Source of the DNA: a virus
IMG/VR virus record: IMGVR_UViG_3300003323_000724
Location: 39,940 to 103,939 of that record
Strand: one strand, 5' to 3'
DNA: 64,000 nt
Part shown: piece by piece, positions 21,518-50,803 of the stretch
How the letters are laid out: every line of letters begins with the position of its first letter
Numbering within the stretch: position 1 is the first letter of the stretch
The notes under the pieces: model-generated
Seen by the model: only the letters and a program-made list of their open reading frames with translations
What the model was told of the DNA's origin: nothing
Databases searched by the model: none
Program-made: the position numbers and the translations under genes

Positions 21518-22077
21518 GCGACGGGGACGCACTTTTGAAGGCGATACTTGCGAACCGGGACGATGACACACCGAGACTGGTGTACGCGGACTGGTTAACT
21601 GAGAACGGACAAGAGGCGAGAGCGGAATTCATTCGGGTGCAGGTGGAATTGATGCGTTGGTTGAAAGAGAACTCAGAAAGCCCCAATCGTGACCCAGACA
21701 TTTATGGAGCGAGGGAAGGAATTTCTCGCATGAAGCAATTGTGGAACCTTCGAGCTTACCCACCCGCACCTAAAGGATTCATTGCTTGTTTGGCCACAGA
21801 TTATTTTGGATACCTTCCTTCGCACCGAGTGGCAGTTTACCGAAGAGGGTTTCCCCATCAGATTTACTGCCCCACTGAAGATTGGTTGGAGTGTGCTGAC
21901 GTGGTGTTTGGTCAATATCCAATTCAAAAAGTAAATCTAACTACTCACATCCCACTGGGCAACCTATTCGATCTGTGCCGAAAGGCAGGATTGGGGGAAT
22001 ACCCCGGGAACCGGATTTCGTTCCATGAAGAGATCCTTGGCGGTATCTGGAAAGGGATCAAATTCACACTCCCTTGA
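21514..22077 (+). CDS. TIGR02996 repeat-companion protein
   Basis: 187 residues. 'ALLKAILANRDDDTPRLVYA', 'DWLTENGQEARAEFIRVQ' is close to the published family consensus and the best match in this window. Later 'YRRGFPHQIYCPTEDW' and 'FGQYPIQKVNLT' complete the non-LRR form. Start GTG 21514, after GGGAGG, overlapping the previous stop. Followed by a 206-base gap. Confidence 0.82.
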   Translation: MSDGDALLKAILANRDDDTPRLVYADWLTENGQEARAEFIRVQVELMRWLKENSESPNRDPDIYGAREGISRMKQLWNLRAYPPAPKGFIACLATDYFGYLPSHRVAVYRRGFPHQIYCPTEDWLECADVVFGQYPIQKVNLTTHIPLGNLFDLCRKAGLGEYPGNRISFHEEILGGIWKGIKFTLP

Positions 22078-22171
22078 GAATAGCCCTAATTTCGCTCAAG
22101 ATCAATTTTGGCCACTCGGACGTGACGTATCCCTGTTGACGTGTCGATCGATCAACCTGGAGCATCCTGTG

Positions 22172-22248
22172 CTAAATAAAAAGGGTCCGGATCGCCTACC
22201 AAGGTAATCCGAACCCCTACTGCAATGAAGGCCCAACAACGAGTTGGG
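22172..22248 (+). promoter_or_regulatory. Structured leader before the DUF262 gene
   Basis: The 206-base gap 22078-22283 carries CTAAAT (22172-22177, possible -10), then a 10-base-pair stem with one mismatch (22183-22192 with 22207-22216), and a second hairpin CCCAAC/GTTGGG (22232-22248). The gene start has its own exposed GAGAGG site. Upstream of 22172 I see only a stray TTGACG. Confidence 0.4.
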
Positions 22249-22283
22249 TGAGCTGCAACGGAATGGTAACAGAGAGGTGAAGG

Positions 22284-22820
22284 ATGGGAAAGTTAACTCG
22301 GTTCCAAGACGTGGACCGGTTCACGCGAGACGGGAGTTGGGAATGTGACTACACCCCGGACCGTCTAATTAAGCAAATCGATGATTGGGTGGGAGAAGAG
22401 AAACTAAATATGGACCCGGACTTCCAACGGGGACACGTTTGGACCGCGAAACAACAAACGGCCTACATCGAGTTCTACCTTCGCGGCGGGAAAACCGCTC
22501 GGGTGATCTACTTCAACAACCCAACCTGGAACCGAGACTGTGACGACTATCGAGATTTCGTAATCGTTGATGGTCTCCAACGGGTGACCGCGTTTCGGAC
22601 GTTCATCGAGAATCGAATCAAGGTGTTCGGGAGCTATTACCGAGAGTACACGGACAGTTTCCGAATGGGACTGAACACGGTGCGGCTGAACGTGAACGAT
22701 CTGAAGACCCGGGCCGAGGTGCTTCAGTGGTACTTGGATTTCAACACCGGTGGCGTGGTCCACACGGACGCGGAGATCCAACGGGTTCGGAAACTGCTCG
22801 AAGCGGAGAAGGTCAAATGA
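22284..22820 (+). CDS. DUF262 (GmrSD/ParB-like) domain protein
   Basis: 178 residues. 'LNMDPDFQRGHVW' and 'FVIVDGLQRVTAF' are the two signature blocks of DUF262 (the second is normally DGQQRLT), seen in ParB-like NTPase folds and in the GmrS part of modification-dependent restriction systems. Here it stands alone, without the DUF1524 HNH nuclease half, so it is not a complete GmrSD. Start ATG follows GAGAGGTGAAGG. Could regulate or counter host defence; inference only. Confidence 0.75.
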   Translation: MGKLTRFQDVDRFTRDGSWECDYTPDRLIKQIDDWVGEEKLNMDPDFQRGHVWTAKQQTAYIEFYLRGGKTARVIYFNNPTWNRDCDDYRDFVIVDGLQRVTAFRTFIENRIKVFGSYYREYTDSFRMGLNTVRLNVNDLKTRAEVLQWYLDFNTGGVVHTDAEIQRVRKLLEAEKVK

Positions 22821-23208: not shown

Positions 23209-23531
23209 CGGAGCAAGAAATGCGGCAACTGGACGCGGAGATCCACACCAAGGTGTTCGGGAAGTTGGCAGGACATACCTATCATTGGACGGACGATTTG
23301 GTTTTCGAGCCACCGGAGGATCTTCCTAGGTACTCAACGAATTTGGTCGATGCGTGGAAGGTTGTGGACAAACTGACGGATAACTACGGGTTTTGTTTGG
23401 ACTCTGGAATCCAACCGGACAAGTGGCAGGCGACCTTTACTCACTTTCCGCACATGTTGGACGAGACAGGAAACACGCCGGCGGAAGCGATCTGCCGGGC
23501 CGCACTGCTAGTTGTCGGGAATCGGGTTTGA
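23205..23531 (+). CDS. Phage ABA-sandwich domain protein
   Basis: 108 residues. 'PRYSTNLVDAWKVVDKL', 'WQATF' and 'AEAICRAALLVVG' are the conserved parts of the Phage_ABA_S (PF18066) family, widespread small phage proteins of unknown function. GTG 23205 follows GGAGG and overlaps the upstream stop. Confidence 0.75.
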   Translation: MTEQEMRQLDAEIHTKVFGKLAGHTYHWTDDLVFEPPEDLPRYSTNLVDAWKVVDKLTDNYGFCLDSGIQPDKWQATFTHFPHMLDETGNTPAEAICRAALLVVGNRV

Positions 23532-23554
23532 TTGGGTGATTCCGTACCGATTCT

Positions 23555-23582
23555 TTGCATTCCCGAATCCGTGAGGCATAGT
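23555..23582 (+). promoter_or_regulatory. Cargo-type promoter, forward
   Basis: TTGCAT (23555-23560), 16-base spacer ending GAGG, CATAGT (23577-23582). The -10 ends 5 bases before ATG 23588, so the transcript should start at or about the A of the start codon. Confidence 0.7.
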
Positions 23583-23587
23583 TGAGC

Positions 23588-23806
23588 ATGGAAACACTAG
23601 CTAACCGACTAGCTCTATGGACCGGCCTGTTTACATTTGCGTGTCTTGGGGTAATGGCTTGTGGGATGGAGTTGTTGGGTCGGCACTGGGAAGCTGGAAT
23701 GATGCTGGGAGCGAATGCAGTTTGTGTGATTCTGATGATGTGGTTTACAGTGGAACACCGACTCCAAAAGGGTTGGTGGCCGTGGCAGGATAAACCAGAG
23801 GATTGA
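23588..23806 (+). CDS. Small membrane protein, two helices, possibly leaderless
   Basis: 72 residues with hydrophobic segments at ~10-30 (LWTGLFTFACLGVMACGMEL) and ~36-54. There is no Shine-Dalgarno and the promoter -10 is 5 bases upstream, so the mRNA is probably leaderless. Role unknown; a membrane protein from its own strong promoter in a phage could be an exclusion factor (inference). Confidence 0.6.
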   Translation: METLANRLALWTGLFTFACLGVMACGMELLGRHWEAGMMLGANAVCVILMMWFTVEHRLQKGWWPWQDKPED

Positions 23807-27467: not shown

Positions 27468-27742
27468 CTGATAAAGGGTTTGAACCAACACACGACATCA
27501 ATCTTACGCTGACCATCAAGGATCGAGTTACGGGCGAAGTGCAGACTCGGGCGACGGAATTCGGAACCTACTGGTGGACGGAAGGTAACGGTTCGGATGA
27601 TTGTAACCGACGGGCATTGTTCTTTCCCGACCATTCAGACGAGCCGTGTCAGGCGAAGCGGTACATTGTGATTGGCGTCGAACCATTGCTCCAAGGCTAC
27701 TCGTTGGAAGACTTTAATCTGAACTACGAGGACGTGAAGTGA
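27464..27742 (+). CDS. Hypothetical protein, 92 residues
   Basis: Beta-rich (INLTLTIKDRVTGEVQTRA), acidic, no motif known. GTG start and 3' end both overlap neighbours; it directly precedes the large glycosyltransferase fusion. Confidence 0.5.
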   Translation: MTDKGFEPTHDINLTLTIKDRVTGEVQTRATEFGTYWWTEGNGSDDCNRRALFFPDHSDEPCQAKRYIVIGVEPLLQGYSLEDFNLNYEDVK

Positions 27743-29760
27743 TTCCGAGTTACTTGCTCGTATGCGATGAACTTCCCGAAAGGCGGGATGGGGCGATCGC
27801 CCACTTGTGGGAACGAGGACTAGAGCCAACGGTTTGGAAAGGATTCCACGGCCGTTCTTGGGGTCTCATGACCACGCGAGAATACGATAAGGGGCAGCGG
27901 ATCAGTCCGGGTCACGTTGGGCTGAATACGGGCAGTTGGGCAATGTGGCAGGCTGCAATGCTAGGGGTCGGGTGTGACGGGACTAAGCCTTGGGATGGGG
28001 ACGAAGAATTGATGTTTTTTGAGGACGATGTTTGCCTTCCTGTCGATTTTAAGAATCAACTGAACGCCCTCTTTTGGGAACTGGACCAATCCCTTCCGGA
28101 CTGGGATTTGGTGTTCTTGGGTCTCGCTGAGGTCCAGCCAAATGTTTGGGGAAAGGTCACAGATCGGTTGGGTGACGGAGCGTCGAGGTTGTGCGTTTTA
28201 GATTCGCCCTTTGGCACCCATGCCCTGCTTGTCCGCCGTCGCGCTCTGCCGGTCCTGCTCGAACACATGCGACACGCGGAACGGAACCTCGATCAACAGC
28301 TCTGGAAGTACGTACTCCAGCCGGGACTATTGAAGTGGTGCGCCGTGCTTCCCTCGATCGTTACCCAGCGAACGTTCGATTACGAAGGAACCGGAAAGCC
28401 GGAATGGGTTGCGTCCACGATCCACGCCGATGATCCGATGTACACGCCCACGCTCCCGCACCACCCACCGGCCGAGCACGTCAACACGCGAAGTCCGGAA
28501 GAAGTGACCAAAGCCATCAAGATGGTCGAACAGGACAAGAATGGAATCGACGTTCACCAGCGGACGCTAGAAATGACGGACCCGATTCCTTGCGCCTACA
28601 GAGGCGAAGGTGTTGATGAGATTGCTTTGTCAAACAAAGGATTTCCAGTTCCCCTCTGGGAATGTGCCCGGCTCGACAAACTGTGTTTCAACAAAAAGGG
28701 AATCGTTCTGGCCGATCCGAAGGAAGCCCTGCGATGTGAAACCTGTGAAGTGCGGGAGCAGCTTACTCCACCGGAGCAGCTAACACGGCTGCCGCTTCCG
28801 GAAGGGCACTTTAACTGCTCAGCCATCAAATGGGACAACCGGTTGATCCTCGCATCTCGTGACTCGTGGGGCCACTCTAAAGTGGCCCTGTGGGAAATGA
28901 CCAACACGGAAAAGGACTGGTCCGGAACTTGGACTGCGAAAGCGATTGGCAGCTTTGCTAGCGATCACTCGTTGATGCCACGACTGGAAGACCCGCGACT
29001 GTTCATCGCACCCAGTCCGGTCACGGGCCGACCGCACCTGTGTTCCGTGTTCTCGTGCCCCGATGGGTATCCGCCGGAGTTGGTTAAGGTTGGATATGTT
29101 CGCTTCAAGGAAGACCTGTCGGGGATCGAACATTCTGAAGTACTTGATTCACCCTACGATAGCAAGTATGAGAAGAACTGGTTACCATTGGTTAACCAAT
29201 ACGGAACAAGTTGGGTGTACGGGTCGAAGCCCAACCACGAAGTGATTCAGTTTGACAAGGACGGGAAGGTTAGTCAGAAGTGGATTACCCCCAATCCACT
29301 ACCGTGGAAGGGCGGTGCCCATCGTGGTGGGGCCGTGCCGGTGTTCGTGTCTCGAACTTACGCACAAGCTAACAAGATGCGCGATTGGGGCTGTGACGTT
29401 CACTACCACTTCCATCATGGGGTTCTTAAGAGGATTCAAGGGGCGGTTTACAGTACGGGATGCACAGTTTTTGAAGCACAACCACCGTACCGAGTTCTTG
29501 CCCAGACTAGGATTCCGCTTCAATGGGCCGACAACTCCGGAAACAATGACCGATGTGTGAAGCGATATGTTCTATTCATCGGTGGAGCAATACCTCATCA
29601 CGGACATTGGAATTTGTTTAGTGGGATCGATGACACATACTGCCGACACTCCAGAATTTCGTTTGCAGTTGTTAACACGGCACTGAACACGGAGCCGGAA
29701 GAAGATCGCGGTGTAGGTATTCGGGACACGCCGATTTCACTTGGATCGAGGGGACAATGA
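27739..29760 (+). CDS. GT25-like glycosyltransferase fused to GH130-like propeller
   Basis: 673 residues. The N-terminal ~220 residues resemble GT25/LPS-type transferases: 'GHVGLNTGSWAMWQAAML' then ELMFFEDDV (94-98 acidic motif, metal and nucleotide-sugar binding) and 'DLVFLGLAE'. A linker with CETC follows. From ~330 on, 'FNCSAIKWDNRLILASR', 'MPRLEDPRLFIAP' (~413-425), 'YEKNWLPL' and 'GGAHRGGAVPVF' match the five-bladed propeller of GH130 mannoside phosphorylases and hydrolases. A single polypeptide could remodel a surface or virion glycan. GTG start overlaps the previous gene, and a methyltransferase follows. Confidence 0.72.
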   Translation: MIPSYLLVCDELPERRDGAIAHLWERGLEPTVWKGFHGRSWGLMTTREYDKGQRISPGHVGLNTGSWAMWQAAMLGVGCDGTKPWDGDEELMFFEDDVCLPVDFKNQLNALFWELDQSLPDWDLVFLGLAEVQPNVWGKVTDRLGDGASRLCVLDSPFGTHALLVRRRALPVLLEHMRHAERNLDQQLWKYVLQPGLLKWCAVLPSIVTQRTFDYEGTGKPEWVASTIHADDPMYTPTLPHHPPAEHVNTRSPEEVTKAIKMVEQDKNGIDVHQRTLEMTDPIPCAYRGEGVDEIALSNKGFPVPLWECARLDKLCFNKKGIVLADPKEALRCETCEVREQLTPPEQLTRLPLPEGHFNCSAIKWDNRLILASRDSWGHSKVALWEMTNTEKDWSGTWTAKAIGSFASDHSLMPRLEDPRLFIAPSPVTGRPHLCSVFSCPDGYPPELVKVGYVRFKEDLSGIEHSEVLDSPYDSKYEKNWLPLVNQYGTSWVYGSKPNHEVIQFDKDGKVSQKWITPNPLPWKGGAHRGGAVPVFVSRTYAQANKMRDWGCDVHYHFHHGVLKRIQGAVYSTGCTVFEAQPPYRVLAQTRIPLQWADNSGNNDRCVKRYVLFIGGAIPHHGHWNLFSGIDDTYCRHSRISFAVVNTALNTEPEEDRGVGIRDTPISLGSRGQ

Positions 29761-30428
29761 ACGTCGAAAACGAATTGGATGTGCTGGGAAGGTATCAGGA
29801 TGAACCATTACACAAAATCGCCGAATCGATCACAGAAGAGGTCCGGATTTGGACACATTTGACAGATGCTTACATTCTTGGTGATTTGCTTCAGGAACAA
29901 GACAAGGAATTGGATTTCGTTTCAGGACGAAACTATACTTGGTGGTACATGATTTCGGATCACTTCGACCCCAGTTCCGTTGTTGAAATCGGGACGCGGT
30001 TTGGTTACGGGTTGAAAGCCGTTCATTCGGGGTTTACTTACGACCGCTTGATGCGGATTCACGTTTTCGATTCCGAGTGCAACCCCGGCGACAAGGAACC
30101 GCTGAAAATATTCGAGGACTACTTCCGCAACCGTCTGGGGATTACTGATCTGCGCATCAACCGTGTAGACACCCAAACGCTAACCACGCTTGGGGTCACC
30201 GAGCCGGTTGACATGGCGATCGTGGACGCGGACCACAGCGAAGCGGGCTGCTACCACGACTGCTGTCTCGCGTGGGAAGCTCTGAAACCGGGCGGCGTGC
30301 TTGTGGTAGACGATTGCAATCCGGGGGAGCCGCAGCGGGCCACGGAACGGTTCTGCCGCGAACGGAACCTGGAATGGGCGTTTCTTCCCTCACTGCGGGG
30401 GATTTACTTGGTGCGAAAGGAAGGATGA
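29757..30428 (+). CDS. Class I SAM-dependent methyltransferase
   Basis: 223 residues. Motif I 'VVEIGTRFGYG' (75-85), acidic 'VDMAIVDADHSEAGCYHD' (151-168) and 'LKPGGVLVVDDC' (176-187) identify a Methyltransf_24-like fold. ATG overlaps the GT-GH gene after GAGGGG, so the pair is coupled and the likely substrate is the same glycan. Confidence 0.85.
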   Translation: MNVENELDVLGRYQDEPLHKIAESITEEVRIWTHLTDAYILGDLLQEQDKELDFVSGRNYTWWYMISDHFDPSSVVEIGTRFGYGLKAVHSGFTYDRLMRIHVFDSECNPGDKEPLKIFEDYFRNRLGITDLRINRVDTQTLTTLGVTEPVDMAIVDADHSEAGCYHDCCLAWEALKPGGVLVVDDCNPGEPQRATERFCRERNLEWAFLPSLRGIYLVRKEG

Positions 30429-30429
30429 C

Positions 30430-30747
30430 ATGGCGGAATCAGACAAGAGGGACTATTCAGATTTTCTGGAATACTGCCATCGAGTCAGTGAAATCGTAAA
30501 AACTTGGCCGGCATGGAAACAAGAAGTATTAGGTGGAAAAGCAGTGCAACAAGCAACCCAAGAACAACCCAAGGTGATCGACGCAACGAAGCGAATCATC
30601 ATTTTCTACTACCCGGCCGAGGATGAAGGAGCCAAAGGACGAGCGGAAAAGAACGCTGCTCGAATCCAAGGTGCCGGAACTCTCGTGGTTTCCCGACCGA
30701 CAACATACACTGGTCCGATGGTTGAAGCGATTGACCCACCAAAGTGA
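30430..30747 (+). CDS. Small protein containing a portal-protein segment
   Basis: 105 residues. Residues 54-101 align without gaps to portal residues 312-359: 'IFYYP..D', 'RAExNAxR', 'VVxRPxxYxGPMVE'; I count 24 identities in 47 positions. The first ~50 residues (with KTWPAWKQEVLGG) are unrelated to the portal. ATG follows AAGGAAGGA. It may be a portal decoy or assembly regulator, a superinfection factor or a leftover duplication. Not explained by any family I know. Confidence 0.7.
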   Translation: MAESDKRDYSDFLEYCHRVSEIVKTWPAWKQEVLGGKAVQQATQEQPKVIDATKRIIIFYYPAEDEGAKGRAEKNAARIQGAGTLVVSRPTTYTGPMVEAIDPPK

Positions 30748-32772: not shown

Positions 32773-35763
32773 ATGCCAGCGTTTGAAATTCCAAATACGT
32801 TCTCCGATTTCAAAATCGGTAACGCTCCCGCCGGATTCGACCCTTCCAAGTTCCGGCTCCCAACTGGCGAGCCGATGCTGAACGATGATTCGCTCATCAT
32901 CCCGGCTAGTCGCGGGTTCACTTCCGTTTGGAATCAGGGTCAGAAGGTATACACCTATCGCTTCGATGAAGCTATGAGGGATTCGTACATCAATGCTCGT
33001 GCAATGCGACGGGACGGGTTCTTACGTGGACTATTTGAAGAACGTATTCTTCCAACGATCAATAGAGAATGGGTAATCGAGATTGACGATGACCGCGACC
33101 CACAGCAGCGGACCGTTCGGGACGCCCTCAAGAAGATCGTTCGGGAAATTCCCCAATTCACCCTTCTGAAACGCGCCCTACTCGACGGGGTGTGGTTCGG
33201 TCGCGCCGGTGTCGCCGGGTTCTTCAACCGGAACCCGGACGTGGAAAACCTGTGGTGCTACAGCTACTCCCCGTCCTGCAAGGATCACAAGTGGGATTCG
33301 GTCCACGGGGACAGCATTCAGTACACGTTCGACGGCATTCCGGCGATCATGATGGATTCCATCACGGCCGGATGGTACGCGGCTAACGGAGCTGTCTGGC
33401 AGGGGGAATGGCAGTCCAAGTTTGGTAACAGCACGACCGGATTCGGTGAGTACGGAGTTACTTCCGGTGGTGGTGATTTGCGGTACACGGACCGGGGCGG
33501 CACGGCTCTGGTTCTCCATCGCAAATACTGGCGGGACCGGTACGCGATTCACCAGCACATGCGCGAGAAGGCGGATTACCTCGAAGGGGAACTAGCGGGT
33601 AGCGTCCAGGGCTTGGGGCTTCGCGGCCTCGTCTACTGGCTCTACGTGCTCCGCACACAAGCCCTTGCGTGGATGCTCGCTTACATGCAGTCCGTCGGCA
33701 TGATGGACATGGTGATTTTCTACTACCCGACGGGGGATCACGCGGCCCGTGTTCGTGCGGAACAGAACGCCAACCGGATGATTGGCAAAGCAGCTTTCGT
33801 TGTGCCCCGGCCGGTAAATTACAACGGGCCAATGGTCGAACAGCTCCAGATGAACAGTGCGGGCTTCAAAGCCATGCACGAGTTCCTGAGTGATTACTTC
33901 GACCGACACATTGAACGCCTCTTTGTGGGCCAGTCCATGAGTTCCGGTGCCGACCACGGCACCGGACTTGGCGGCACCGGGCGCGCTCTTTTTGCAAAGG
34001 CCACTAAAGACGAGATTATTCAGTACGATACAACAAACCTTGATGAGACTATAACCCGCGACATTCTTACTCCGTTGAAGCAGTACAACTTTGCGTGGGC
34101 CAACTTTCCGGTTCGGTTCAAATCGATGCTTCCTGATCCGGACGCGCAAGAGAAGGTACAGAGCGGCAAGGTTCTGGTTTCTCTGGGGATTCCCGTCAAG
34201 TCCGTGGAAATGCTCCAAGCGGCCAAGTTTACGACTCCGGAAGACGGAGATGAGGTCATCATTGCTGCCGGTCCGGGGGGTCCGCCAATCCTTACGACGA
34301 TGGGGCCAAACGGCCCGCTCCCGCCGCAGCAGTCGCCAATGATGGCCTCCATGATGCCCCCAATCGGTCCGGGCGGTGGTCCAATGCTGCCCCCGGGTCC
34401 GATGGGACCGCCCGGAATTCCCCCCGGTTCGGCACCTCCACGGCCGCTATTGACTCAGCCACCGATCCAGAACGGCCCCCAAATCGCACCAGTTCGTCCA
34501 TATGTGGTTCCGCAGCACCAGATGGTGACTTTGCCAGCCGGATCACATTCGGCGATTGTTCGCCATCCTGTGCGATTTGCGGAGGGGGCATCGGGGGCAC
34601 CGCCGTCCGCTGGCCCCGTGATGGGAAGTCCGGCGGGAAGCAACACGTACATTCCGAGTGCGGGGACCAAACCATCCTACGAACGGCGACACACCCCCAA
34701 GGGTGGCATCACGTACCGGGACAAGCCTTACCGTTCGGGTCAATTCATGCCCGGTACGGTAATGTTTCAGCACACCCCGCCGCGACCGAAAGTGACGGCC
34801 GACTTTGGTTCCCGGACGCCCCCGAAACCACCGGTGGAGTACACGGAAGATCAACCCCAAGAACAACTCCCGTGGACCGGGCACCCGGACGCCGAAGCGG
34901 TGATGAGTTCACTGCCGAAAGCGGCCCACGAGCGGCTCAAAACGCGGCTCCTGAAGTTCACTCCGGTTCCGGACGTGGAAACGTCAACCAAGATGTGGTA
35001 CGACGGTGACCCAAACGCACCGCATCCGAGCAAACGAACCCCCGCGATTGCGTTCTACGATCCGGCTAACGGGGAATTGGTTGCGGCTCCGGGCGGTCCA
35101 AACGTAGACGCAAGAGGGGCAATTGCCCACGAGATGTTCCACGCTCTCGATCAGGACGAGAACCGGCAGTATTTCGATCTGTCCGGTGATCCGGAGTGGT
35201 TGGATGCGTGGCAGAAGGAAATTGCGGGCGGGCAGCTATCTAAGTACGCCACAACCGATGAAATTGAGGCGTTTTCCGAGATGGGACGGGCGTTGCATGG
35301 GGGTCAGCACGACCGGGGGGATATCGAAAAGCGATTCCCCCAATCGGTGGCGTTCCTACGCAAGCACGGGTTGGTGGATGAACCGAAACAACCAACCCAA
35401 GCCTCTCGGTACGCCGAAGAATACGACACTTCACATTTGCTGTTACCTTCTGCTGGCGGTTGGGTGGGCAAGGAAAAGTCTCGTGATTTGGGGGACGGAA
35501 TTATTCATTTTGTTGATCCATTCGGCAGCCACCGTTTTGTAGCTCATTCCGAAGGAGTTCCCGTGTCGGCAATTCAAGTGATGGGTACGGGAAAATCGGG
35601 AAGGGTTGTGGGAGCCTATACCCATCCGCAATACAGGCGGATGGGCCACGCTTCTAATTTAATCCACACCGCTCGTGGAATTTTTCCAGACTTGAGCTTT
35701 GACGATGATAGGTCGAGCGCGGGGGATGGGTTGGTGCAATCTTTAACGAGACAACCGAATTAA
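32773..35763 (+). CDS. Portal protein fused to metallopeptidase and GNAT-like domain
   Basis: 996 residues. Residues ~40-490 are a Mu gp29-type (DUF935) portal: 'INREWVIEIDDDRDPQQR', 'MMDMVIFYYP', 'LFVGQSMSSGADHGTGLGG', 'LFAKATKDEIIQYD'. A Pro/Gly-rich linker (~495-700) follows. Then ~700-860 has AIAHEMFHALD, a zincin HExxH (His786, Glu787, His790) with a later acidic 'EIEAFSEMGRALHGG' that could give the third zinc ligand. Residues ~880-996 contain 'VVGAYTHPQYRRMGHASNLI', the acetyl-CoA loop of GNAT acetyltransferases, short for a complete domain. Ordinary portals are ~450-550 residues, so half the protein is additional. Confidence 0.85.
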   Translation: MPAFEIPNTFSDFKIGNAPAGFDPSKFRLPTGEPMLNDDSLIIPASRGFTSVWNQGQKVYTYRFDEAMRDSYINARAMRRDGFLRGLFEERILPTINREWVIEIDDDRDPQQRTVRDALKKIVREIPQFTLLKRALLDGVWFGRAGVAGFFNRNPDVENLWCYSYSPSCKDHKWDSVHGDSIQYTFDGIPAIMMDSITAGWYAANGAVWQGEWQSKFGNSTTGFGEYGVTSGGGDLRYTDRGGTALVLHRKYWRDRYAIHQHMREKADYLEGELAGSVQGLGLRGLVYWLYVLRTQALAWMLAYMQSVGMMDMVIFYYPTGDHAARVRAEQNANRMIGKAAFVVPRPVNYNGPMVEQLQMNSAGFKAMHEFLSDYFDRHIERLFVGQSMSSGADHGTGLGGTGRALFAKATKDEIIQYDTTNLDETITRDILTPLKQYNFAWANFPVRFKSMLPDPDAQEKVQSGKVLVSLGIPVKSVEMLQAAKFTTPEDGDEVIIAAGPGGPPILTTMGPNGPLPPQQSPMMASMMPPIGPGGGPMLPPGPMGPPGIPPGSAPPRPLLTQPPIQNGPQIAPVRPYVVPQHQMVTLPAGSHSAIVRHPVRFAEGASGAPPSAGPVMGSPAGSNTYIPSAGTKPSYERRHTPKGGITYRDKPYRSGQFMPGTVMFQHTPPRPKVTADFGSRTPPKPPVEYTEDQPQEQLPWTGHPDAEAVMSSLPKAAHERLKTRLLKFTPVPDVETSTKMWYDGDPNAPHPSKRTPAIAFYDPANGELVAAPGGPNVDARGAIAHEMFHALDQDENRQYFDLSGDPEWLDAWQKEIAGGQLSKYATTDEIEAFSEMGRALHGGQHDRGDIEKRFPQSVAFLRKHGLVDEPKQPTQASRYAEEYDTSHLLLPSAGGWVGKEKSRDLGDGIIHFVDPFGSHRFVAHSEGVPVSAIQVMGTGKSGRVVGAYTHPQYRRMGHASNLIHTARGIFPDLSFDDDRSSAGDGLVQSLTRQPN

Positions 35764-35942: not shown

Positions 35943-36242
35943 TCAACGATACTCAGATCCGAATGACATTTTCATCAGGTTGATATCGGCTTGGTTCAGT
36001 GCATCGCAGAATAAACCAAGCCCGGTTTTATCCAGATACTCCGTGATGGATGCACACAAGGAACGCAATCGTTCCCTATCATGGGGTTTGGATTTTAGAC
36101 ATTCGGTCCGTTTCAGAAAATTCATCTCATGTATTAATCTGCGAGCTTCCGATACTCTTTCTTTGGGCGTAGCTGCTGATCGCAAAGACGCGAACGTGTC
36201 GGACAGGGAGGAAATTAAATTTCGATAATCAGCAACTCGCAT
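35943..36242 (-). CDS. Hypothetical helical protein, 99 residues
   Basis: All-helical, basic protein (RNLISSLSDTFASLRSAA, KERVSEARRLIHEMN). ATG follows GGAGACTGAG and lies ~28 bases after the predicted start of a TTGACT/CATAGT promoter, so it has its own transcription unit. No family recognised. Confidence 0.6.
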   Translation of the reverse strand: MRVADYRNLISSLSDTFASLRSAATPKERVSEARRLIHEMNFLKRTECLKSKPHDRERLRSLCASITEYLDKTGLGLFCDALNQADINLMKMSFGSEYR

Positions 36243-36276
36243 CTCAGTCTCCGGTTCGTGTTGTTTGGGACACTCA

Positions 36277-36304
36277 ACTATGCAACACGAACCGGAAGAG
36301 TCAA
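36277..36304 (-). promoter_or_regulatory. Cargo-type promoter, reverse strand
   Basis: Minus strand TTGACT (36299-36304), 16-base spacer ending GTTG, CATAGT (36277-36282). Drives the 36242-35943 gene. Confidence 0.75.
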
Positions 36305-36322
36305 ATAAACCGTGGGATATAT

Positions 36323-36703
36323 TTAAATCTCTTCATTCTGTTGGGGAACCACCAAGAATCCACGCTGTTCTAGTTCCACAAGGGCATCGAGGTGCTTGCA
36401 TCGCCCCCCAGCCTCGTAGCCTTTACAACAGCACGCATGGTGCATGTCCGGATCGGTTACCAAGCACACATAGTGCTCCTCTCCGGTAGGTCGTTTTCGG
36501 AGCCGGAAGTGCCGCTCCGGCCCCTTGTGGTCGTACAGCTCCCGCACGTAATACTGAGACTTGTACTTCTGGCTAGTTTCCGTCCGCTGGCCGCAAATTT
36601 CCAGTGCCCCGCGAAGTCCGTCCGGCTGATCGATCTGGACCCAAGTGGCCGTGCGGATCGGATGCACACGGGTTGGGGAAAGAGGGACTGTGTTGAGCTT
36701 CAT
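36323..36703 (-). CDS. SWIM-type zinc finger protein
   Basis: 126 residues. HHACCCKGYEAGGRCKHLDA is a SWIM motif (CxC...CxH), a zinc finger used for DNA or protein binding. The N-terminal half is unrecognised. ATG 36703 follows GAGGAACAAGA and overlaps the upstream gene's stop; the longer reading lacks a site. Confidence 0.75.
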   Translation of the reverse strand: MKLNTVPLSPTRVHPIRTATWVQIDQPDGLRGALEICGQRTETSQKYKSQYYVRELYDHKGPERHFRLRKRPTGEEHYVCLVTDPDMHHACCCKGYEAGGRCKHLDALVELEQRGFLVVPQQNEEI

Positions 36704-36909
36704 TCTTGTTCCTCTCGTGGTGGCGGGGTGAAAGCGAAGTGGATTCCGTTGCACCCCAGAATCTCCACCAACTTCAGAGCCGAGTACGTTTCCAGCTTTC
36801 CCAAAATTGACTCGGACGATCCGCCTGCACGTTCAATTGCACCTGCAAGACTTGCAAGACATTTAGCAATTCGGGCCGCAATGTCTTCTTGGTTGTAGTT
36901 TTTGGTCAC
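36700..36909 (-). CDS. Hypothetical helical protein, 69 residues
   Basis: Ala/Glu/Leu-rich helix pair (IAARIAKCLASLAGAIERAG). GTG 36909 overlaps the upstream TGA and follows GGGAAGGGAAA. No family recognised. Confidence 0.55.
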   Translation of the reverse strand: MTKNYNQEDIAARIAKCLASLAGAIERAGGSSESILGKLETYSALKLVEILGCNGIHFAFTPPPREEQE

Positions 36910-37223
36910 TTTCCCTTCCCTCCCTTTTTGGCTGTCGGCGATTCCCATTCGTACTCGTAAGTTCCGTACTCTGCTGCGTAGATGCCCAGATCGGTCAGTT
37001 TGTAAACCGTTCGGTGTTCGACCGGCTGTGATCGTAGATCACCCTTGTCGACCGAAACCACTTCGATTAGCCCGTCTTGGACCAGTTTCGAGAACCACGT
37101 CCCGTCCTTGGTCTTTCTGCCCCAATACATTTGCCGCAACTCGGCACCAGTACATTCTTTGTCCCTGACGAGCATCCTTAGCACCCGCCACGTCGCACTG
37201 TCGAGATCCTTGATACGCTTCAC
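36906..37223 (-). CDS. Winged-helix DNA-binding protein
   Basis: 105 residues. 'DSATWRVLRMLVRDKECTGA', 'LRQMYWGRKTKDGTWFSKLV', 'QDGLIEVVSVD' and 'HRTVYKLTDLGIYAAE' give the helix-helix-helix-wing pattern of a winged HTH. Lys-rich end. Probably a transcription regulator of this small reverse operon or of the adjacent structural operon. Confidence 0.65.
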   Translation of the reverse strand: MKRIKDLDSATWRVLRMLVRDKECTGAELRQMYWGRKTKDGTWFSKLVQDGLIEVVSVDKGDLRSQPVEHRTVYKLTDLGIYAAEYGTYEYEWESPTAKKGGKGK

Positions 37224-37468
37224 TTCGATTCCTCTTCAGACTGGATGGAAAATGAGTAATTGGGAACACGTTCGCGAAGTAACTTCATGAATTCGTTTTT
37301 GGCCTTTTCGATGTCCCACTCCGAACCGCATGGGGCGCATTGGATGTCGAATTGAATCGTGCCTGATGCCCTTCCGTTTTCAACTTTGTCCACGATCAGA
37401 ACGGAACTGGTCACCTTGGCTAGTGGGATTCCAAAGGACCGATAGACCTGTCGTTTGAGCCAGTTCAT
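37220..37468 (-). CDS. Hypothetical protein with CAPC motif
   Basis: 82 residues starting MNWLKRQVYRSFGIP. 'FDIQCAPCGSEWDIE' has a CxxC. ATG 37468 follows GGAGGAGAAC and is ~20 bases after the predicted transcript start; it is the first gene of this operon. No family recognised. Confidence 0.55.
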   Translation of the reverse strand: MNWLKRQVYRSFGIPLAKVTSSVLIVDKVENGRASGTIQFDIQCAPCGSEWDIEKAKNEFMKLLRERVPNYSFSIQSEEESK

Positions 37469-37494
37469 GTTCTCCTCCAGTTCGGGAACACGCA

Positions 37495-37522
37495 ACTATG
37501 CACCACGTCGGACCGAATGCAA
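37495..37522 (-). promoter_or_regulatory. Cargo-type promoter, reverse strand
   Basis: Minus strand TTGCAT (37517-37522), 16-base spacer ending GGTG, CATAGT (37495-37500). Drives the 37468-36323 operon and lies back-to-back with the candidate promoter of the protease gene. Confidence 0.72.
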
Positions 37523-37623
37523 GGAAACCGATAGATTTTGTTCCGGATTGGCTGTTTTCGGAGTCCTTTGCCCACGAATTGGAGAAAGTCAAAAAATTTT
37601 GTCGGATTTGCCCTAAATTTGTG

Positions 37624-37651
37624 TTTACTTGTTGCCACGGCATCCTATACG
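37624..37651 (+). promoter_or_regulatory. Candidate promoter for the protease/head operon
   Basis: TTTACT (37624-37629), 16-base spacer, TATACG (37646-37651). Different from the cargo-type promoters. It would start transcription near 37658, just ahead of the structured leader. Confidence 0.45.
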
Positions 37652-37696
37652 CTAATTCAAACGGGCAGCGATCGACTAGCTATCTTTCGCCACAAA

Positions 37697-37794
37697 CCAA
37701 TGCCACTGAGAGAGACGGGAGCGAATCCCGATCCGGTGTGGTTGGTTTCACACTTCTCCTTCAGTGGCATTGGCTCCCACCTCAAGGCCACTGA
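37697..37794 (+). ncRNA. Structured leader with alternative pairing (cis-regulatory)
   Basis: CCAATGCCACTGA (37697-37709) pairs perfectly with TCAGTGGCATTGG (37761-37773), enclosing two hairpins, CGGGA/TCCCG (37716-37730) and GTGTG/CACAC (37736-37753): a three-way junction. The 3' arm can instead pair with GCCACTGA (37787-37794), next to the TTG start at 37796 and touching its AAGG. The two folds exclude each other, which is how a translational switch works. Confidence 0.5.
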
Positions 37795-37795
37795 G

Positions 37796-39613
37796 TTGTC
37801 TACCCACTACTTAGCACCCACTCCCGAAACACCTCCCGCCGCTATTACGCCGGATCAGGTGCCCACGGGTGTCGATGCCACGGCGTCATTCGGGCAAAAG
37901 ATAAACGATTCGAGCAAATGGAAAGTAGTTAGTGGGGTTCCTGTATTCAAGGCGCACCAGCGAACTGACCCCAACACACAAAAGCTGATTTCGGTTGACC
38001 TTCCCAAGCTCTATCGAATTGCCGAGAACATGCAGCGGATGGAGCGACAGGGCGGCGTGCCGATTCGGATGACTTTAGGACACACCGAGCCGGGGAAGCC
38101 CGAGACACAGCAGCCCCCGATTGCTGGGTACTACCGAAACGCACGGGTGCAGAAGTTCGGACCCGGCGGCGAACCGGCAATCGTTGTAGATGAGTTTCTC
38201 GACCCCCAGTTCTCGAACGTGCGGAAGAACTACCCGTACCGCAGTTCGGAATACTACGACGACACGGAACAGATTACCGGTGTCGCACTCCTAACCCGCG
38301 ACCCGTTCCTCGATCTTGGCGTAGTCGCCTATCAGAAGGGCGACCAAAGCAACCTGACTTACGAGAACCGGCAGACCACTTCCTTTGTGGCCCACGCGAC
38401 GGAAATCCCCGGTTCCGGCCAAACGAATCCTTCTACCGGGCGCACCCCGGTAATGTACCGCCTCAACCTCGGAGAAGTTCCTATGTACCCGCAGGGTGCG
38501 CCCCAGCCGAACCAATTCGTTCCGCCCCCGCAACAGGTTCCGGTTGCCCCGCAACCGACTCCTTACGCTGCTCCCGTTCAACAGTCCGACCCGCAGCCTG
38601 TGTGGGGCCAAACCGTTCCCGCTCCGACGCCCTACGCTTACCCGCGTCCGGTTTCGTACTGGGACGGCACCCAAGCCTCTGGTGGCAACCCGCCCCGGCC
38701 GGTTCCGCACCAACACCAGAACACGGGTGCGATCTACAGCCAGAACGGTCGCGGTGGGATCGGCCGCTACGCGGACGAACCGCCGATGGGTGGCCCTCCG
38801 AACGCTGGTCCTCCTGGAAGCGAACCGGGGAACAGTGGCCCGACCGCTTCACCGCTGGATCAAGTACGGGAACTGCTGATGCAAGCCGCTCAAGTCCTTG
38901 CGGACTGTGAAGGTGGCGGCATGGGTGGCCCCGGCGGTCCTCCGATGATGGCTTCTCGTACCGGCGGCAATGCTCGCTACGGCCGTACTCCGAGCCGCCC
39001 GCGTCTCTCCCCGGGAGCACGGTACGAAACTCCCCGGACCCCGACGCAGTACACCGGTGCGACAACCATTTCTGGGATGCCCGTGGGTGTCCAGATGGAA
39101 ATGGACAAGCTGAAGCTCGAAAACACCCAGCTCAAGCAGGGGATGAACGTCCTGTTCTACGAACGGGACCAAGCGGACACCCACGCTTGCATCGAGACCG
39201 TTCGCAGCCTTCAGTACCAAGGCTTCCAGGTCGGCGAGTACGAGGTTTCGGAACTCAAGAAGAAGACCCCGGAAGAACGGGCCGCTTACGTTCAGCACAT
39301 CGCGACCCACTACCAACAGATCGGCACCACGCCGCTTCCGCAGCAGTTGGGTGATCCGACCCCGGCTGGGGCGGAACCGGTTCCACCGATGACCAAGGAA
39401 CACATGCAAGCGGCCCTGCGTGCGACTCAGGGAAACAACGACTCGAACGCATTTATTGCGGCCATGACGCACTATCAGCGGAACGGTGTCCCGGCCGGTA
39501 GCCGATTTACCCCTCCGACGGTGCAACCGAGCTATGCGTTCGACCAGAACCCGTTCGAGGGGCAAGCGGTTCCCAACGCCGCTCCCGGGACGAACCCGTA
39601 CTCGATGGATTGA
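37796..39613 (+). CDS. Mu gpI-like prohead protease/scaffold
   Basis: 605 residues from TTG 37796 (AAGG 8 bases upstream; the longer frame runs through the leader structure). The N-terminal ~220 residues match phage I-type proteases: 'GVPVFKAHQ', 'IRMTLGHTEP', 'PIAGYYRNARV', 'DEFLDPQFSN' and 'ITGVALLTRDPFLDLG'. The centre is a long Pro/Gln/Gly-rich linker, and the C-terminus has a coiled coil (MDKLKLENTQLKQGMNVLFY) plus a short tail, as in protease-scaffold fusions. Position between portal and capsid agrees. Confidence 0.78.
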   Translation: MSTHYLAPTPETPPAAITPDQVPTGVDATASFGQKINDSSKWKVVSGVPVFKAHQRTDPNTQKLISVDLPKLYRIAENMQRMERQGGVPIRMTLGHTEPGKPETQQPPIAGYYRNARVQKFGPGGEPAIVVDEFLDPQFSNVRKNYPYRSSEYYDDTEQITGVALLTRDPFLDLGVVAYQKGDQSNLTYENRQTTSFVAHATEIPGSGQTNPSTGRTPVMYRLNLGEVPMYPQGAPQPNQFVPPPQQVPVAPQPTPYAAPVQQSDPQPVWGQTVPAPTPYAYPRPVSYWDGTQASGGNPPRPVPHQHQNTGAIYSQNGRGGIGRYADEPPMGGPPNAGPPGSEPGNSGPTASPLDQVRELLMQAAQVLADCEGGGMGGPGGPPMMASRTGGNARYGRTPSRPRLSPGARYETPRTPTQYTGATTISGMPVGVQMEMDKLKLENTQLKQGMNVLFYERDQADTHACIETVRSLQYQGFQVGEYEVSELKKKTPEERAAYVQHIATHYQQIGTTPLPQQLGDPTPAGAEPVPPMTKEHMQAALRATQGNNDSNAFIAAMTHYQRNGVPAGSRFTPPTVQPSYAFDQNPFEGQAVPNAAPGTNPYSMD

Positions 39614-40543: not shown

Positions 40544-41998
40544 ATGTTACCGACCAACCCGGCGAACGGGGCAGCACAAACCCAAACCGCTCCGACGGTT
40601 CAGCAAATGGGGTTTAACCCCATGCAGTTCACGCCGAATCCTACCCTCGGGGACAAGACTCGGAACCGTGATTGGGCCAAGCGGGAAGCGCAACTCAATT
40701 ACGAGATGGCGCAAGCCCCGCTCCCGCACCAGTACACCACGGCATCGGCCCACCCGATGTTCGGTGGTGGGTCCGGCAGTCCGCTAACCCAGTGGCTTCC
40801 GCAAGGGCAGCCCACGGGCTTCGCGGCGAACAAGGCTCCGGTGCTCTACAGCAACCCGGGTACGGCCCCGATGGTCCGCCCGACGTATGCGTACAACAAC
40901 CGGCTCGTGGGTATCAACCCGAGACAGCCGACGATGTACGTGGGAACGTGGCCGAACCAGCAGTACCCGGCTGGCTCTAACACGTACATTCCGAACTGGG
41001 AAGCCACCGGGATCATCATCAAATTCACCCGGGACGCCTCCAAGTTTCGGATCAACAAGTACCTCAAGTTCCTGACCGTACCGAAGGATCAGGGGTACTA
41101 TCTGACCCTCGACGCGGACAACCCGTACCGGATCATCAACCCCGCTGACTGGGCGTGGGAAGACGGCGCGGACGCTCCCGGCGGTCGTGGCAATAAGCAA
41201 GGGTTCGGGTTCCAGCCGTACAAGACGAGCCGGATGTGCTTCCCGTTCACCCTCGGGCAGAAGTCCGTTACGCAGGCCGAATGGCCGATCGTTGCGGAAC
41301 ACGCGATGATGGCCGCGTGCCAAGCGATGACGCTGCGAACGATCGTGAGCACGGCTCTGTTGACCAACACGGCTAACTGGACCGGTTCGTTCGGTACGAA
41401 CACGTCCGCTCAGTCCGCTCAGTGGACGAACGCGGCGTCCAACACGTCGAACGCGATCCAGACGGACATCAACACGGCGATGATCGCGATCGAACAGGCT
41501 TCGGGCGGTATCGTTACCGACGAGGAAGCCCTGAACATCACCCTGAACCCGGTAACGGCTCGGGGTATCGCGAAGTCCTACGAGTACAAGCAGTACATCC
41601 AAGGGTCTCCGGACGCCCTGGCTGCGATCACGGACCAACGGAACCCGAACCGCAAGTACGGTCTCGCCCCGTACCTCTACGGTCTGGCTCTGGTGGTGGA
41701 AAACGCCATCCAGGTGACCACACCGAAGTCGGACAACGTGGCTTCTCCGCTGGCACAGAGCCGTAGCTACATTTGGGCTAACCAGTACGTGAACATCACC
41801 AGCAAGCCCACCGGGTTGGTTGGTGAGGATCAGCAAACCTTGGACTTCAGCACAGTGGCAATGCGAAGTCTAGAAAACTTAACGACAGAAACTAAGGCAG
41901 ACCCCGATAACCGCCGCGAAACCGGCCGCGTCGTAGATGAATTCTGTACGTGTGTTCAGGCACCTCAGACGGGGTACTTGATTACTGGTGTCACGTAA
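40544..41998 (+). CDS. Major capsid protein
   Basis: 484 residues, encoded in regular, strongly biased codons as for a highly expressed gene. Features of an HK97-like capsid: proline-rich N-arm, 'WPIVAEHAMMAACQAMTLRT' long helix, 'VTDEEALNITLNPVTARGIA' and C-terminal 'PTGLVGEDQQTLDF'. Order protease, decoration, capsid, DUF1320 connector is that of Mu-type heads. I cannot see a clear scaffold cleavage site. A terminator-like hairpin follows. Confidence 0.78.
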   Translation: MLPTNPANGAAQTQTAPTVQQMGFNPMQFTPNPTLGDKTRNRDWAKREAQLNYEMAQAPLPHQYTTASAHPMFGGGSGSPLTQWLPQGQPTGFAANKAPVLYSNPGTAPMVRPTYAYNNRLVGINPRQPTMYVGTWPNQQYPAGSNTYIPNWEATGIIIKFTRDASKFRINKYLKFLTVPKDQGYYLTLDADNPYRIINPADWAWEDGADAPGGRGNKQGFGFQPYKTSRMCFPFTLGQKSVTQAEWPIVAEHAMMAACQAMTLRTIVSTALLTNTANWTGSFGTNTSAQSAQWTNAASNTSNAIQTDINTAMIAIEQASGGIVTDEEALNITLNPVTARGIAKSYEYKQYIQGSPDALAAITDQRNPNRKYGLAPYLYGLALVVENAIQVTTPKSDNVASPLAQSRSYIWANQYVNITSKPTGLVGEDQQTLDFSTVAMRSLENLTTETKADPDNRRETGRVVDEFCTCVQAPQTGYLITGVT

Positions 41999-49930: not shown

Positions 49931-50803
49931 GTGGCCGACAACTTTCCCGTAACACCGGCGACATCCTCCCCGATGCGGGACGTGGCCACCGATCAGGTTA
50001 CGTATAGCGGTGATTCTGCTGACGTGCAGCTCATCCGGTACGTGTTCGTTACTGGAGCCGAAGGGTCAAAGACTGTTATCGATCCCCCTGCTGGAGCCGG
50101 AGCAACGACCAGCGGGACGCCACGAACTGTCACCGCTTCTGATTCACCCGAAGTGACGGCACTCGCCAGTGTAGTCACCAACACCGGTGACGCACTCACC
50201 CGCATCGGGGAAGTTAGTTCCAATCCAACGTCTAATACGATCCTCGATCGACTGCTTCAGATTCAGGTACTTTTGGGCAACGCGACGACGATTCAGAGTG
50301 AATACTTTGCGGCCCTCCCGACACTGACCAACGGACAACTTTCCCCACCGGCTCTTGATGTTAACAGCGTTCTTTACACAAATCCGGGAGCACTGAGTTA
50401 CACAACGGACAGTGTTTCGTCCTACGCAACGGCCCGAACGAGTGGCGGAACCAGTATCAGCAAGCTAATCACGGCCGCAACTACTAATGCAACTGTAGTC
50501 AAGGCGAGTGCAGGACAGCGTTACCGTGTTGTGTGCTCGAATCTCAATACATCTGAAGCCCGGTACGTTCACTTTTGTAACTCATCATCGACTCCAGTCG
50601 CGGGCACAACAGCCGTTGTCGACACGATTGTGGTTCCGGCCGCGTCCTCTTCGATCCTCCCAACTGTGATGGGCTTCAGTGACGGAATCGGTGTCGCGTT
50701 CTCTACCGGCATCAGCTATTACGTGACTAAAGGTGTTCTCGACAGCGATGCAACGGCACTCACGACCGCGAACGACATGGTTATTACCGTGGAGTGGTTC
50801 TAA
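49931..50803 (+). CDS. Tail/fibre structural protein, 290 residues
   Basis: Ser/Thr/Val/Ala-rich protein with a C-terminal beta domain ('QRYRVVCSNLNTSEARYVHF', 'PAASSSILPTVMGFSDGIGV') like other small phage fibre proteins. GTG 49931 after GGAG; stop overlaps the tailspike ATG. Confidence 0.6.
   Translation: MADNFPVTPATSSPMRDVATDQVTYSGDSADVQLIRYVFVTGAEGSKTVIDPPAGAGATTSGTPRTVTASDSPEVTALASVVTNTGDALTRIGEVSSNPTSNTILDRLLQIQVLLGNATTIQSEYFAALPTLTNGQLSPPALDVNSVLYTNPGALSYTTDSVSSYATARTSGGTSISKLITAATTNATVVKASAGQRYRVVCSNLNTSEARYVHFCNSSSTPVAGTTAVVDTIVVPAASSSILPTVMGFSDGIGVAFSTGISYYVTKGVLDSDATALTTANDMVITVEWF

What the first reader, a model, noticed from the sequence alone, without database searches (positions are those of the whole stretch)
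32773..35763. Portal fused to a zinc metallopeptidase and an acetyltransferase-like domain
Beyond a normal DUF935 portal there are ~500 additional residues with an HExxH zincin motif and a GNAT-type acetyl-CoA loop. Twelve copies of such enzymes at the DNA channel could be delivered into the host or act in capsid maturation.
Basis: partly seen in the sequence, partly recalled or inferred. Interest (0 to 1): 0.78.

Follow-up and report, generated by a model that had tools for sequence, protein, structure and literature searches.

The report
Phage portal with built-in enzyme tail
A virus of bacteria carries, fused to the end of the protein ring through which its DNA passes, a real zinc-protease domain and a probable acetyltransferase domain, most likely enzymes packed inside the virus head for delivery into the host; this is a new example of a known phage strategy rather than a new kind of system.

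Summary
The ORF at 32773-35763 is one uninterrupted 996-aa frame: a Mu-type portal core (PF06074, formerly DUF935), a Pro/Gly-rich linker, and about 300 extra residues. The extra zincin is real. A two-sequence profile hits anthrax lethal factor in the PDB at E=1e-7, and an AlphaFold model (pLDDT ~80-90) matches the M34-type proteases lethal factor and PPEP. All five active-site positions (H786, E787, H790, Y825, E832) are present. The acetyltransferase (GNAT) is probable, not proven: Pfam scores are sub-threshold and the model is uninformative. The fusion is not an assembly error, because a diverged relative (43% identity) has portal+zincin without the GNAT. A third relative has an unrelated, possibly ParB-like tail, so the tail behaves as a swappable module. 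The linker shares a nonamer, PAGSNTYIP, with the presumed major capsid protein. The core motif occurs exactly twice in each of three related virus records, which suggests a shared head-protease or targeting site. Phage Mu's own portal appears to lose its C-terminus to protease I. Best reading: a polyvalent effector tail, released inside the head and ejected with DNA. Processing and injection are inferred. Portals fused to effector domains are already described (Iyer 2017), so this is a new member of a known kind.

The parts
32773..34260 (+). Portal core (Mu-type, PF06074/DUF935), residues 1-496
   Evidence: Pfam E=2e-34; PHROG_113 portal E=8e-20; 54-57% identity to the cores of two related viruses
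34261..34842 (+). Pro/Gly-rich linker, residues 497-690
   Evidence: 48 Pro and 26 Gly in residues 496-700; 12 Pro-Pro dipeptides; poorly conserved
34630..34656 (+). Nonamer PAGSNTYIP, residues 620-628, identical to residues 142-150 of the presumed major capsid protein; candidate head-protease or capsid-targeting site
   Evidence: Longest peptide shared by any pair of 20 window ORFs (next 6); at most 6 in 1000 shuffles; coding motif occurs exactly twice in each of three virus records
34864..35388 (+). Zincin metallopeptidase domain (M34/lethal factor/PPEP-like), residues 698-872
   Evidence: PDB profile hit to lethal factor E=1e-7; AlphaFold pLDDT mostly ~80-90; Foldseek to LF E=2e-5 and PPEP-2 TMt 0.64
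35128..35142 (+). HExxH active-site motif (HEMFH, residues 786-790); with Y825 (35245-35247) and E832 (35266-35268) a complete M34-type active-site set
   Evidence: Positions; conserved in relative L003; alignment to lethal factor
35389..35412 (+). QPTQASRY, residues 873-880, at the zincin/GNAT junction; the same octamer lies in the separate ORF after the portal in relative L003
35413..35760 (+). GNAT-like acetyltransferase domain, residues 881-996 (motif A at 35626-35661)
   Evidence: Pfam Acetyltransf_7 E=0.0012, sub-threshold; only PF00583 match in this virus record; model uninformative, pLDDT ~35
37538..39613 (+). Candidate head protease + scaffold gene (conserved part from about 37850; the TTG start is uncertain)
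   Evidence: Conserved in three viruses, N-terminal part 61-64% identical; same relative position as Mu gene I/Z; no profile match to any known protease, so the assignment is inferred
40544..41998 (+). Presumed major capsid protein with PAGSNTYIP at residues 142-150 (40967-40993)
   Evidence: 58-63% identity in three viruses, GSNTY invariant; position after protease/scaffold as in Mu; no profile match and failed model, so the assignment is inferred

Best explanation
This is a Mu-type portal protein whose C-terminus has grown a modular, polyvalent-type effector tail: a flexible Pro/Gly linker, an M34-like zinc metallopeptidase and a GNAT-like acetyltransferase. Portal C-termini lie at the crown, inside the head, so the portal ring would place 12 tails in the head lumen. 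The most likely sequence is: (1) the portal carries the tail into the prohead; (2) the head protease cuts at or near the GSNTY site shared with the presumed capsid protein, leaving an ordinary portal of about 620-630 residues and freeing a ~370-residue enzyme fragment, perhaps cut again at QPTQASRY; (3) the fragment is ejected with the DNA and acts on host proteins by cleavage and acetylation. Shown here: the fusion, the zincin fold, its complete active site, conservation of the portal-zincin fusion, tail swapping between relatives, and the shared motif. Inferred: GNAT activity, crown location, cleavage, release, ejection and host targets.
For: Intact frame and portal domain. Zincin by profile and by fold, with a complete active site conserved in a relative at 43% overall identity. 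In relative L003 the tail ends after the zincin. In relative L004 the portal core is conserved but the tail is unrelated and carries a ParB-like motif. GSNTY motif: exactly two sites in each of three virus records, one in the presumed capsid protein and one in the portal linker or the ORF directly after the portal; nonamer identity far above shuffles. Best viral fold matches are 'minor capsid' proteins, with polyvalent-domain and vRNAP proteins lower and weaker. Literature: the last 124 residues of Mu portal gp29 are absent from virions and possibly cut by protease I (PMC11915804). Giant-phage head protease cuts capsid, portal and other head proteins at a shared motif (PMC5694885). Portal and MuF fusions to effector domains are proposed to be injected (PMC5512222; PMC5576092).
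Against: No virion proteomics. The candidate protease and capsid protein have no profile support and the capsid-protein model failed. GSNTY could be a binding motif rather than a cut site. In L003 the GSNTY copy is in the separate ORF after the portal, not in the portal itself, so that zincin would not be released by a cut at this motif. GNAT support is sub-threshold, and the domain occurs in only one of the three viruses.
Confidence: 0.55

Rival explanations
1. The zincin works inside the prohead as an assembly or maturation protease (processing head proteins), and the tail is a structural or internal-core element that never enters the host.
For: It would sit in the head lumen. N4-type vRNAP needs its metallopeptidase-containing region for encapsidation and P1 DdrB is processed before packaging (PMC5512222). 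Portal-linked location and linker motif shared with the presumed capsid protein.
Against: Relative L004 keeps the same capsid, candidate protease/scaffold and portal core but has no such zincin in its 119-kb record (record possibly incomplete). A GNAT has no obvious role in assembly. Tail swapping fits effectors better than an essential maturation enzyme.
Confidence: 0.2
2. The zincin is an autoprocessing module: PPEP-like, it cuts the Pro-Pro-rich linker or the zincin-GNAT junction to free itself and/or the GNAT, in the head or after injection.
For: The fold matches Pro-Pro endopeptidases (PPEP-2 TMt 0.64). The linker holds 12 Pro-Pro dipeptides. Autoprocessing is the role Iyer et al. favour for such domains (PMC5512222).
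Against: The relative with the zincin (L003) has only one Pro-Pro in its tail, while the relative without it (L004) has three, so Pro-Pro content does not track the zincin. Pro-rich linkers also occur in the scaffold gene.
Confidence: 0.15
3. GSNTY is a shared docking or capsid-targeting peptide, not a cleavage site; the tail stays tethered to the portal in the mature virion and acts, if at all, from there.
For: Conservation extends beyond a minimal cut site ([YF]P-x-GSNTY-[IVL]P) and continues with a downstream I-x-F/Y-TR segment in the capsid protein and in L003/L004 copies.
Against: The Mu portal C-terminus is missing from virions. The motif lies about 142 residues into the presumed capsid protein, close to known capsid propeptide lengths (130 in SPN3US; 124 in P1).
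Confidence: 0.2
4. Artefact: misassembly or a chance motif in a disordered tail.
For: None beyond the single contig.
Against: Independent relative with the same fusion, confident fold, profile hit.
Confidence: 0.02

Closest known systems
Polyvalent proteins of phages and conjugative elements (Iyer et al. 2017, PMC5512222)
   Same: Multidomain protein; lethal-factor-like zincin, their most common domain; GNAT domains also used; portal fusions to PBECR, 2H and InPase domains reported; head packaging and injection proposed
   Different: The combination portal + zincin + GNAT was not named in the parts read; the motif shared with the presumed capsid protein is not part of that description
MuF polymorphic toxins of temperate phages (Jamet et al. 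2017, PMC5576092)
   Same: Effector domain on a head protein at the portal; 20% of MuF toxins carry a metallopeptidase; head loading and injection hypothesised; best viral fold matches here are 'minor capsid' proteins
   Different: Here the carrier is the portal itself; no MuF domain was found in the portal or, in the two relatives, in the next ORF
Phage Mu portal gp29 and protease I (PMC11915804)
   Same: Same portal family (PF06074); C-terminal residues apparently removed by the head protease; portal - protease/scaffold - capsid gene order
   Different: Mu's lost C-terminus is 124 residues with no enzyme reported there; no detectable sequence similarity between the candidate protease here and Mu I
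M34 metallopeptidases: anthrax lethal factor catalytic domain and Pro-Pro endopeptidases (PPEP)
   Same: Fold, HExxH plus Tyr and Glu active-site layout
   Different: About 17% identity in the structural alignment; attached to a phage portal; no receptor-binding or translocation parts; substrate unknown
Giant-phage (SPN3US/phiKZ) head maturation (PMC5694885)
   Same: One protease processes capsid, portal and some inner head proteins at a shared sequence motif
   Different: There the portal propeptide is N-terminal and the motif ends in Glu; here the shared motif is GSNTY and the appended part is C-terminal

Membership tests
Mu-type portal (PF06074) | Significant match to the portal profile over the core | tested here: met
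   E=2.2e-34, 119.8 bits against a cut-off of 23.9
M34-type zincin (lethal factor/PPEP) | Zincin fold closest to LF/PPEP | tested here: met
   AlphaFold pLDDT ~80-90 over residues 698-872; Foldseek LF E=2e-5, PPEP-2 TMt 0.64; profile E=1e-7
M34-type zincin (lethal factor/PPEP) | HExxH plus downstream Tyr and Glu zinc ligand | tested here: met
   H786, E787, H790, Y825, E832; conserved in L003
M34-type zincin (lethal factor/PPEP) | Curated Pfam cut-off (ATLF, PF07737) | tested here: not met
   13.4 and 14.1 bits against 27.4 for two members; hence 'M34-like', not a filed member of PF07737
M34-type zincin (lethal factor/PPEP) | Zinc-dependent proteolysis | not testable with these tools
   needs an assay
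GNAT acetyltransferase | Acetyl-CoA-binding motif A (Q/R-x-x-G-x-G/A) | tested here: met
   PQYRRMGHASNL at residues 952-963; 72 of 20,000 shuffles
GNAT acetyltransferase | Profile match above cut-off | tested here: not met
   19.6 bits against 27 and 17.2 against 20.7
GNAT acetyltransferase | GNAT fold | tested here: inconclusive
   model pLDDT ~35 in this part, single sequence
Phage polyvalent protein | Two or more effector-type domains in one polypeptide of a portal-terminase phage | tested here: met
   zincin (firm) plus GNAT (probable) on a portal
Phage polyvalent protein | Packaged in the head and injected | not testable with these tools
   needs virion proteomics and ejection assay
MuF polymorphic toxin | MuF domain N-terminal to the toxin domain | tested here: not met
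   no MuF match in the portal or in the next ORF of relatives
Mu-type prohead protease (gene 37538-39613) | Sequence similarity to Mu I or a known head protease | tested here: not met
   no match by Pfam, PHROGs, PDB profile or hhalign; position and residue pattern only

The most novel reading that the evidence does not exclude
In this virus lineage the portal is a general carrier for swappable enzyme cargo. Whatever is fused behind the linker is taken into the head twelvefold and cut loose by the same maturation step that trims the capsid protein, at a shared GSNTY site. Zincin, zincin+GNAT and ParB-like modules would be exchanged between relatives like the toxin ends of polymorphic toxins.
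Probability: 0.35. Interest if true: 0.68.

Novelty: new member of a known kind. Interest (0 to 1): 0.46.

Why it matters
It gives a clear, testable case of a phage portal carrying enzyme cargo, with an apparently intact active site, a visible module boundary and a candidate release site shared with the presumed capsid protein. If the cut is real, attaching cargo to a portal would be a simple way to load exactly twelve copies of an enzyme per head. Three relatives with three different tails make the tail's exchange directly testable. The zincin itself extends the lethal factor/PPEP-type fold in phage heads, where substrates are unknown.

Tried and rejected
Single-protein searches of viral and genome collections found no relatives. 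Relatives came only through the presumed capsid protein and the portal alignment; further scans returned the same two viruses, and a genome scan with the capsid alignment found no host. tblastn of the zincin, GNAT, capsid protein and candidate protease against 50,697 phage records gave nothing for window sequences and only a weak hit for the L003 zincin (E=0.4). The AlphaFold model of the presumed capsid protein failed (pLDDT 29), so its fold and the position of GSNTY in it could not be checked. Profile comparison with Mu protease I and Mu capsid protein found nothing. The idea that Pro-Pro content of the linker marks PPEP-type self-cleavage was checked against relatives and does not track the zincin. 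[AGS]RY as a second processing motif was considered: it occurs three times in the scaffold gene and once in the portal but also in unrelated ORFs, so it is not claimed. The ParB-like assignment of the L004 tail rests on the motif DGVHRLWKARAKG only; searches did not confirm it.

Full report
What is there. The ORF at 32773-35763 (+) is one open frame of 996 codons. Its first ~496 residues are a Mu-type portal (PF06074, the former DUF935; E=2e-34; PHROG_113 portal). A Pro/Gly-rich linker follows to about residue 690, then two further domains. The window lies in an IMG/VR virus record of 103,939 bases.

The zincin is real. Single-sequence hits were weak but pointed the same way (Pfam ATLF E=0.065; PDB lethal factor E=0.002). 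A profile of just two sequences (window and relative L003) hits anthrax lethal factor at E=1e-7, with a PRO-PRO endopeptidase as the next family (E=0.42). An AlphaFold model of residues 690-996 is confident (pLDDT mostly ~80-90) exactly over residues 698-872. Foldseek places it with lethal factor (E=2e-5) and PPEP-2 (TM 0.64 by target length). H786, E787, H790, Y825 and E832 reproduce the lethal-factor layout (the residue roles are from general knowledge of M34 enzymes). The curated ATLF cut-off is not reached, so I call it M34-like.

The GNAT is probable. Residues 952-963 match acetyl-CoA motif A, found in 0.36% of shuffled tails. Several GNAT families score on the isolated region, all below cut-off (best E=0.0012). 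In a whole-record search this is the only PF00583 match in the virus (E=6e-4). The model is uninformative here (pLDDT ~35). No relative of the domain was found in either related virus. G+C in this part drops to 0.49, against 0.57-0.65 over residues 501-900, compatible with late acquisition but not proof.

Relatives. A scan with the presumed capsid protein found L003 (IMGVR_UViG_3300033067_001965), and the two-portal alignment found L004 (IMGVR_UViG_3300044946_000175). L003's portal (853 aa, 43% identical overall) has the same zincin and stops right after it. The next ORF overlaps the portal's end by 13 bases and carries GSNTYVP and QPTQASRY, two peptides that sit inside the portal tail in the window. 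So some tail elements are split off in the relative while the zincin stays fused. L004's portal (976 aa) keeps the core (57% identical) and a GSNTYLP linker, but its tail is unrelated and no zincin like this one is found in its 119-kb record. Its tail contains a ParB-like motif (motif only). An assembly error is thereby excluded and the tail looks modular.

A shared head motif. The portal linker and the presumed capsid protein share the nonamer PAGSNTYIP (portal 620-628, capsid 142-150). It is the longest peptide shared by any pair among 20 window ORFs (next longest 6), and shuffled portals never share more than 6 residues with the capsid protein. The codons differ (GGAAGCAACACGTAC and GGCTCTAACACGTAC), so it is not a recent DNA copy. 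A DNA pattern for the core peptide occurs exactly twice in each of the three virus records; the reversed control pattern gave 0, 0 and 1. One site is in the presumed capsid protein. The other is in the portal linker (window, L004) or in the ORF directly after the portal (L003). GSNTY is invariant in the three capsid proteins. A capsid site ~142 residues in fits known propeptide lengths (130 in SPN3US, PMC5694885; 124 in P1, PMC12810830). I read it as a head-protease or targeting site. That is inference: the capsid protein and the candidate protease/scaffold (37538-39613) are named by position, size and conservation only. Neither has a profile match, and the capsid model failed.

How it most likely works. 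The crown and wing of portals lie inside the head (JBD30, PMC11445458; C-terminal crown in P1), so the tail should project into the head lumen, twelve copies per ring. In phage Mu, of the same portal family, the last 124 residues of the portal are absent from the virion and may be cut by protease I (PMC11915804). In giant phages one protease trims capsid, portal and some inner head proteins. The simplest account is that the head protease frees the tail, which is then ejected with DNA to act on host proteins. Domains of this kind on portals and MuF proteins are proposed to do this (PMC5512222; PMC5576092). The best viral fold matches are two 'minor capsid' proteins; phage 'lethal factor', polyvalent-domain and vRNAP proteins appear lower and weaker. 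A difficulty is that in L003 the GSNTY copy is outside the portal, so release there would need another site.

Rivals. A maturation-protease role is weakened by L004, which has the same head genes without the zincin. Self-cleavage in the Pro-Pro linker is suggested by the PPEP fold, but Pro-Pro content does not follow the zincin among relatives (12, 1 and 3). A docking role for GSNTY with the tail remaining attached cannot be excluded.

Known or new. Portal fusions to effector domains and lethal-factor-like zincins in phage head proteins are described. The combination portal + zincin + GNAT and the capsid-shared motif were not found in the papers read, but I could not survey all published architectures. 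I therefore file it as a new member of the polyvalent, portal-fused kind. The carrier-with-release-site reading is the more novel case.

Noticed in passing
window 30430-30747 (+): A 105-aa ORF ends in a 46-residue stretch 52% identical to portal residues 313-358 (E=1e-14): a partial second copy of the portal 2 kb upstream of it. A weaker copy (36%) lies in the L004 virus at 22344-22484 of its record.
   Followed up: partly
window 35943-37495 (-): Several small minus-strand ORFs interrupt the head operon between portal and candidate protease/scaffold; one (36323-36754) has a SWIM-like Cys/His pattern (CCCKGYEAGGRCKH), without a Pfam match.
   Followed up: no
window 27739-30428 (+): A 673-aa glycosyltransferase-like ORF (by eye; no Pfam hit) also present in L003 and L004, followed in the window by a methyltransferase (PF13578, E=2e-12), sits directly upstream of the portal region.
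   Followed up: no
L004 7960-10890: Portal of the related virus carries a different tail with a ParB-like motif (DGVHRLWKARAKG) and a hydrophobic stretch near the end; the next ORF is 1175 aa with two similar GNAT-looking repeats.
   Followed up: partly
record of L004 (G002), 21859-22284 and 23386-23634: Two additional partial copies of the presumed capsid protein (35-43% identity) downstream of the full-length one.
   Followed up: no
window 50794-55635 (+): 1613-aa protein with four fibronectin type III repeats (E=2e-29) and a weak tip-attachment J-like Ig domain: probable tail-tip/host-recognition protein.
   Followed up: no
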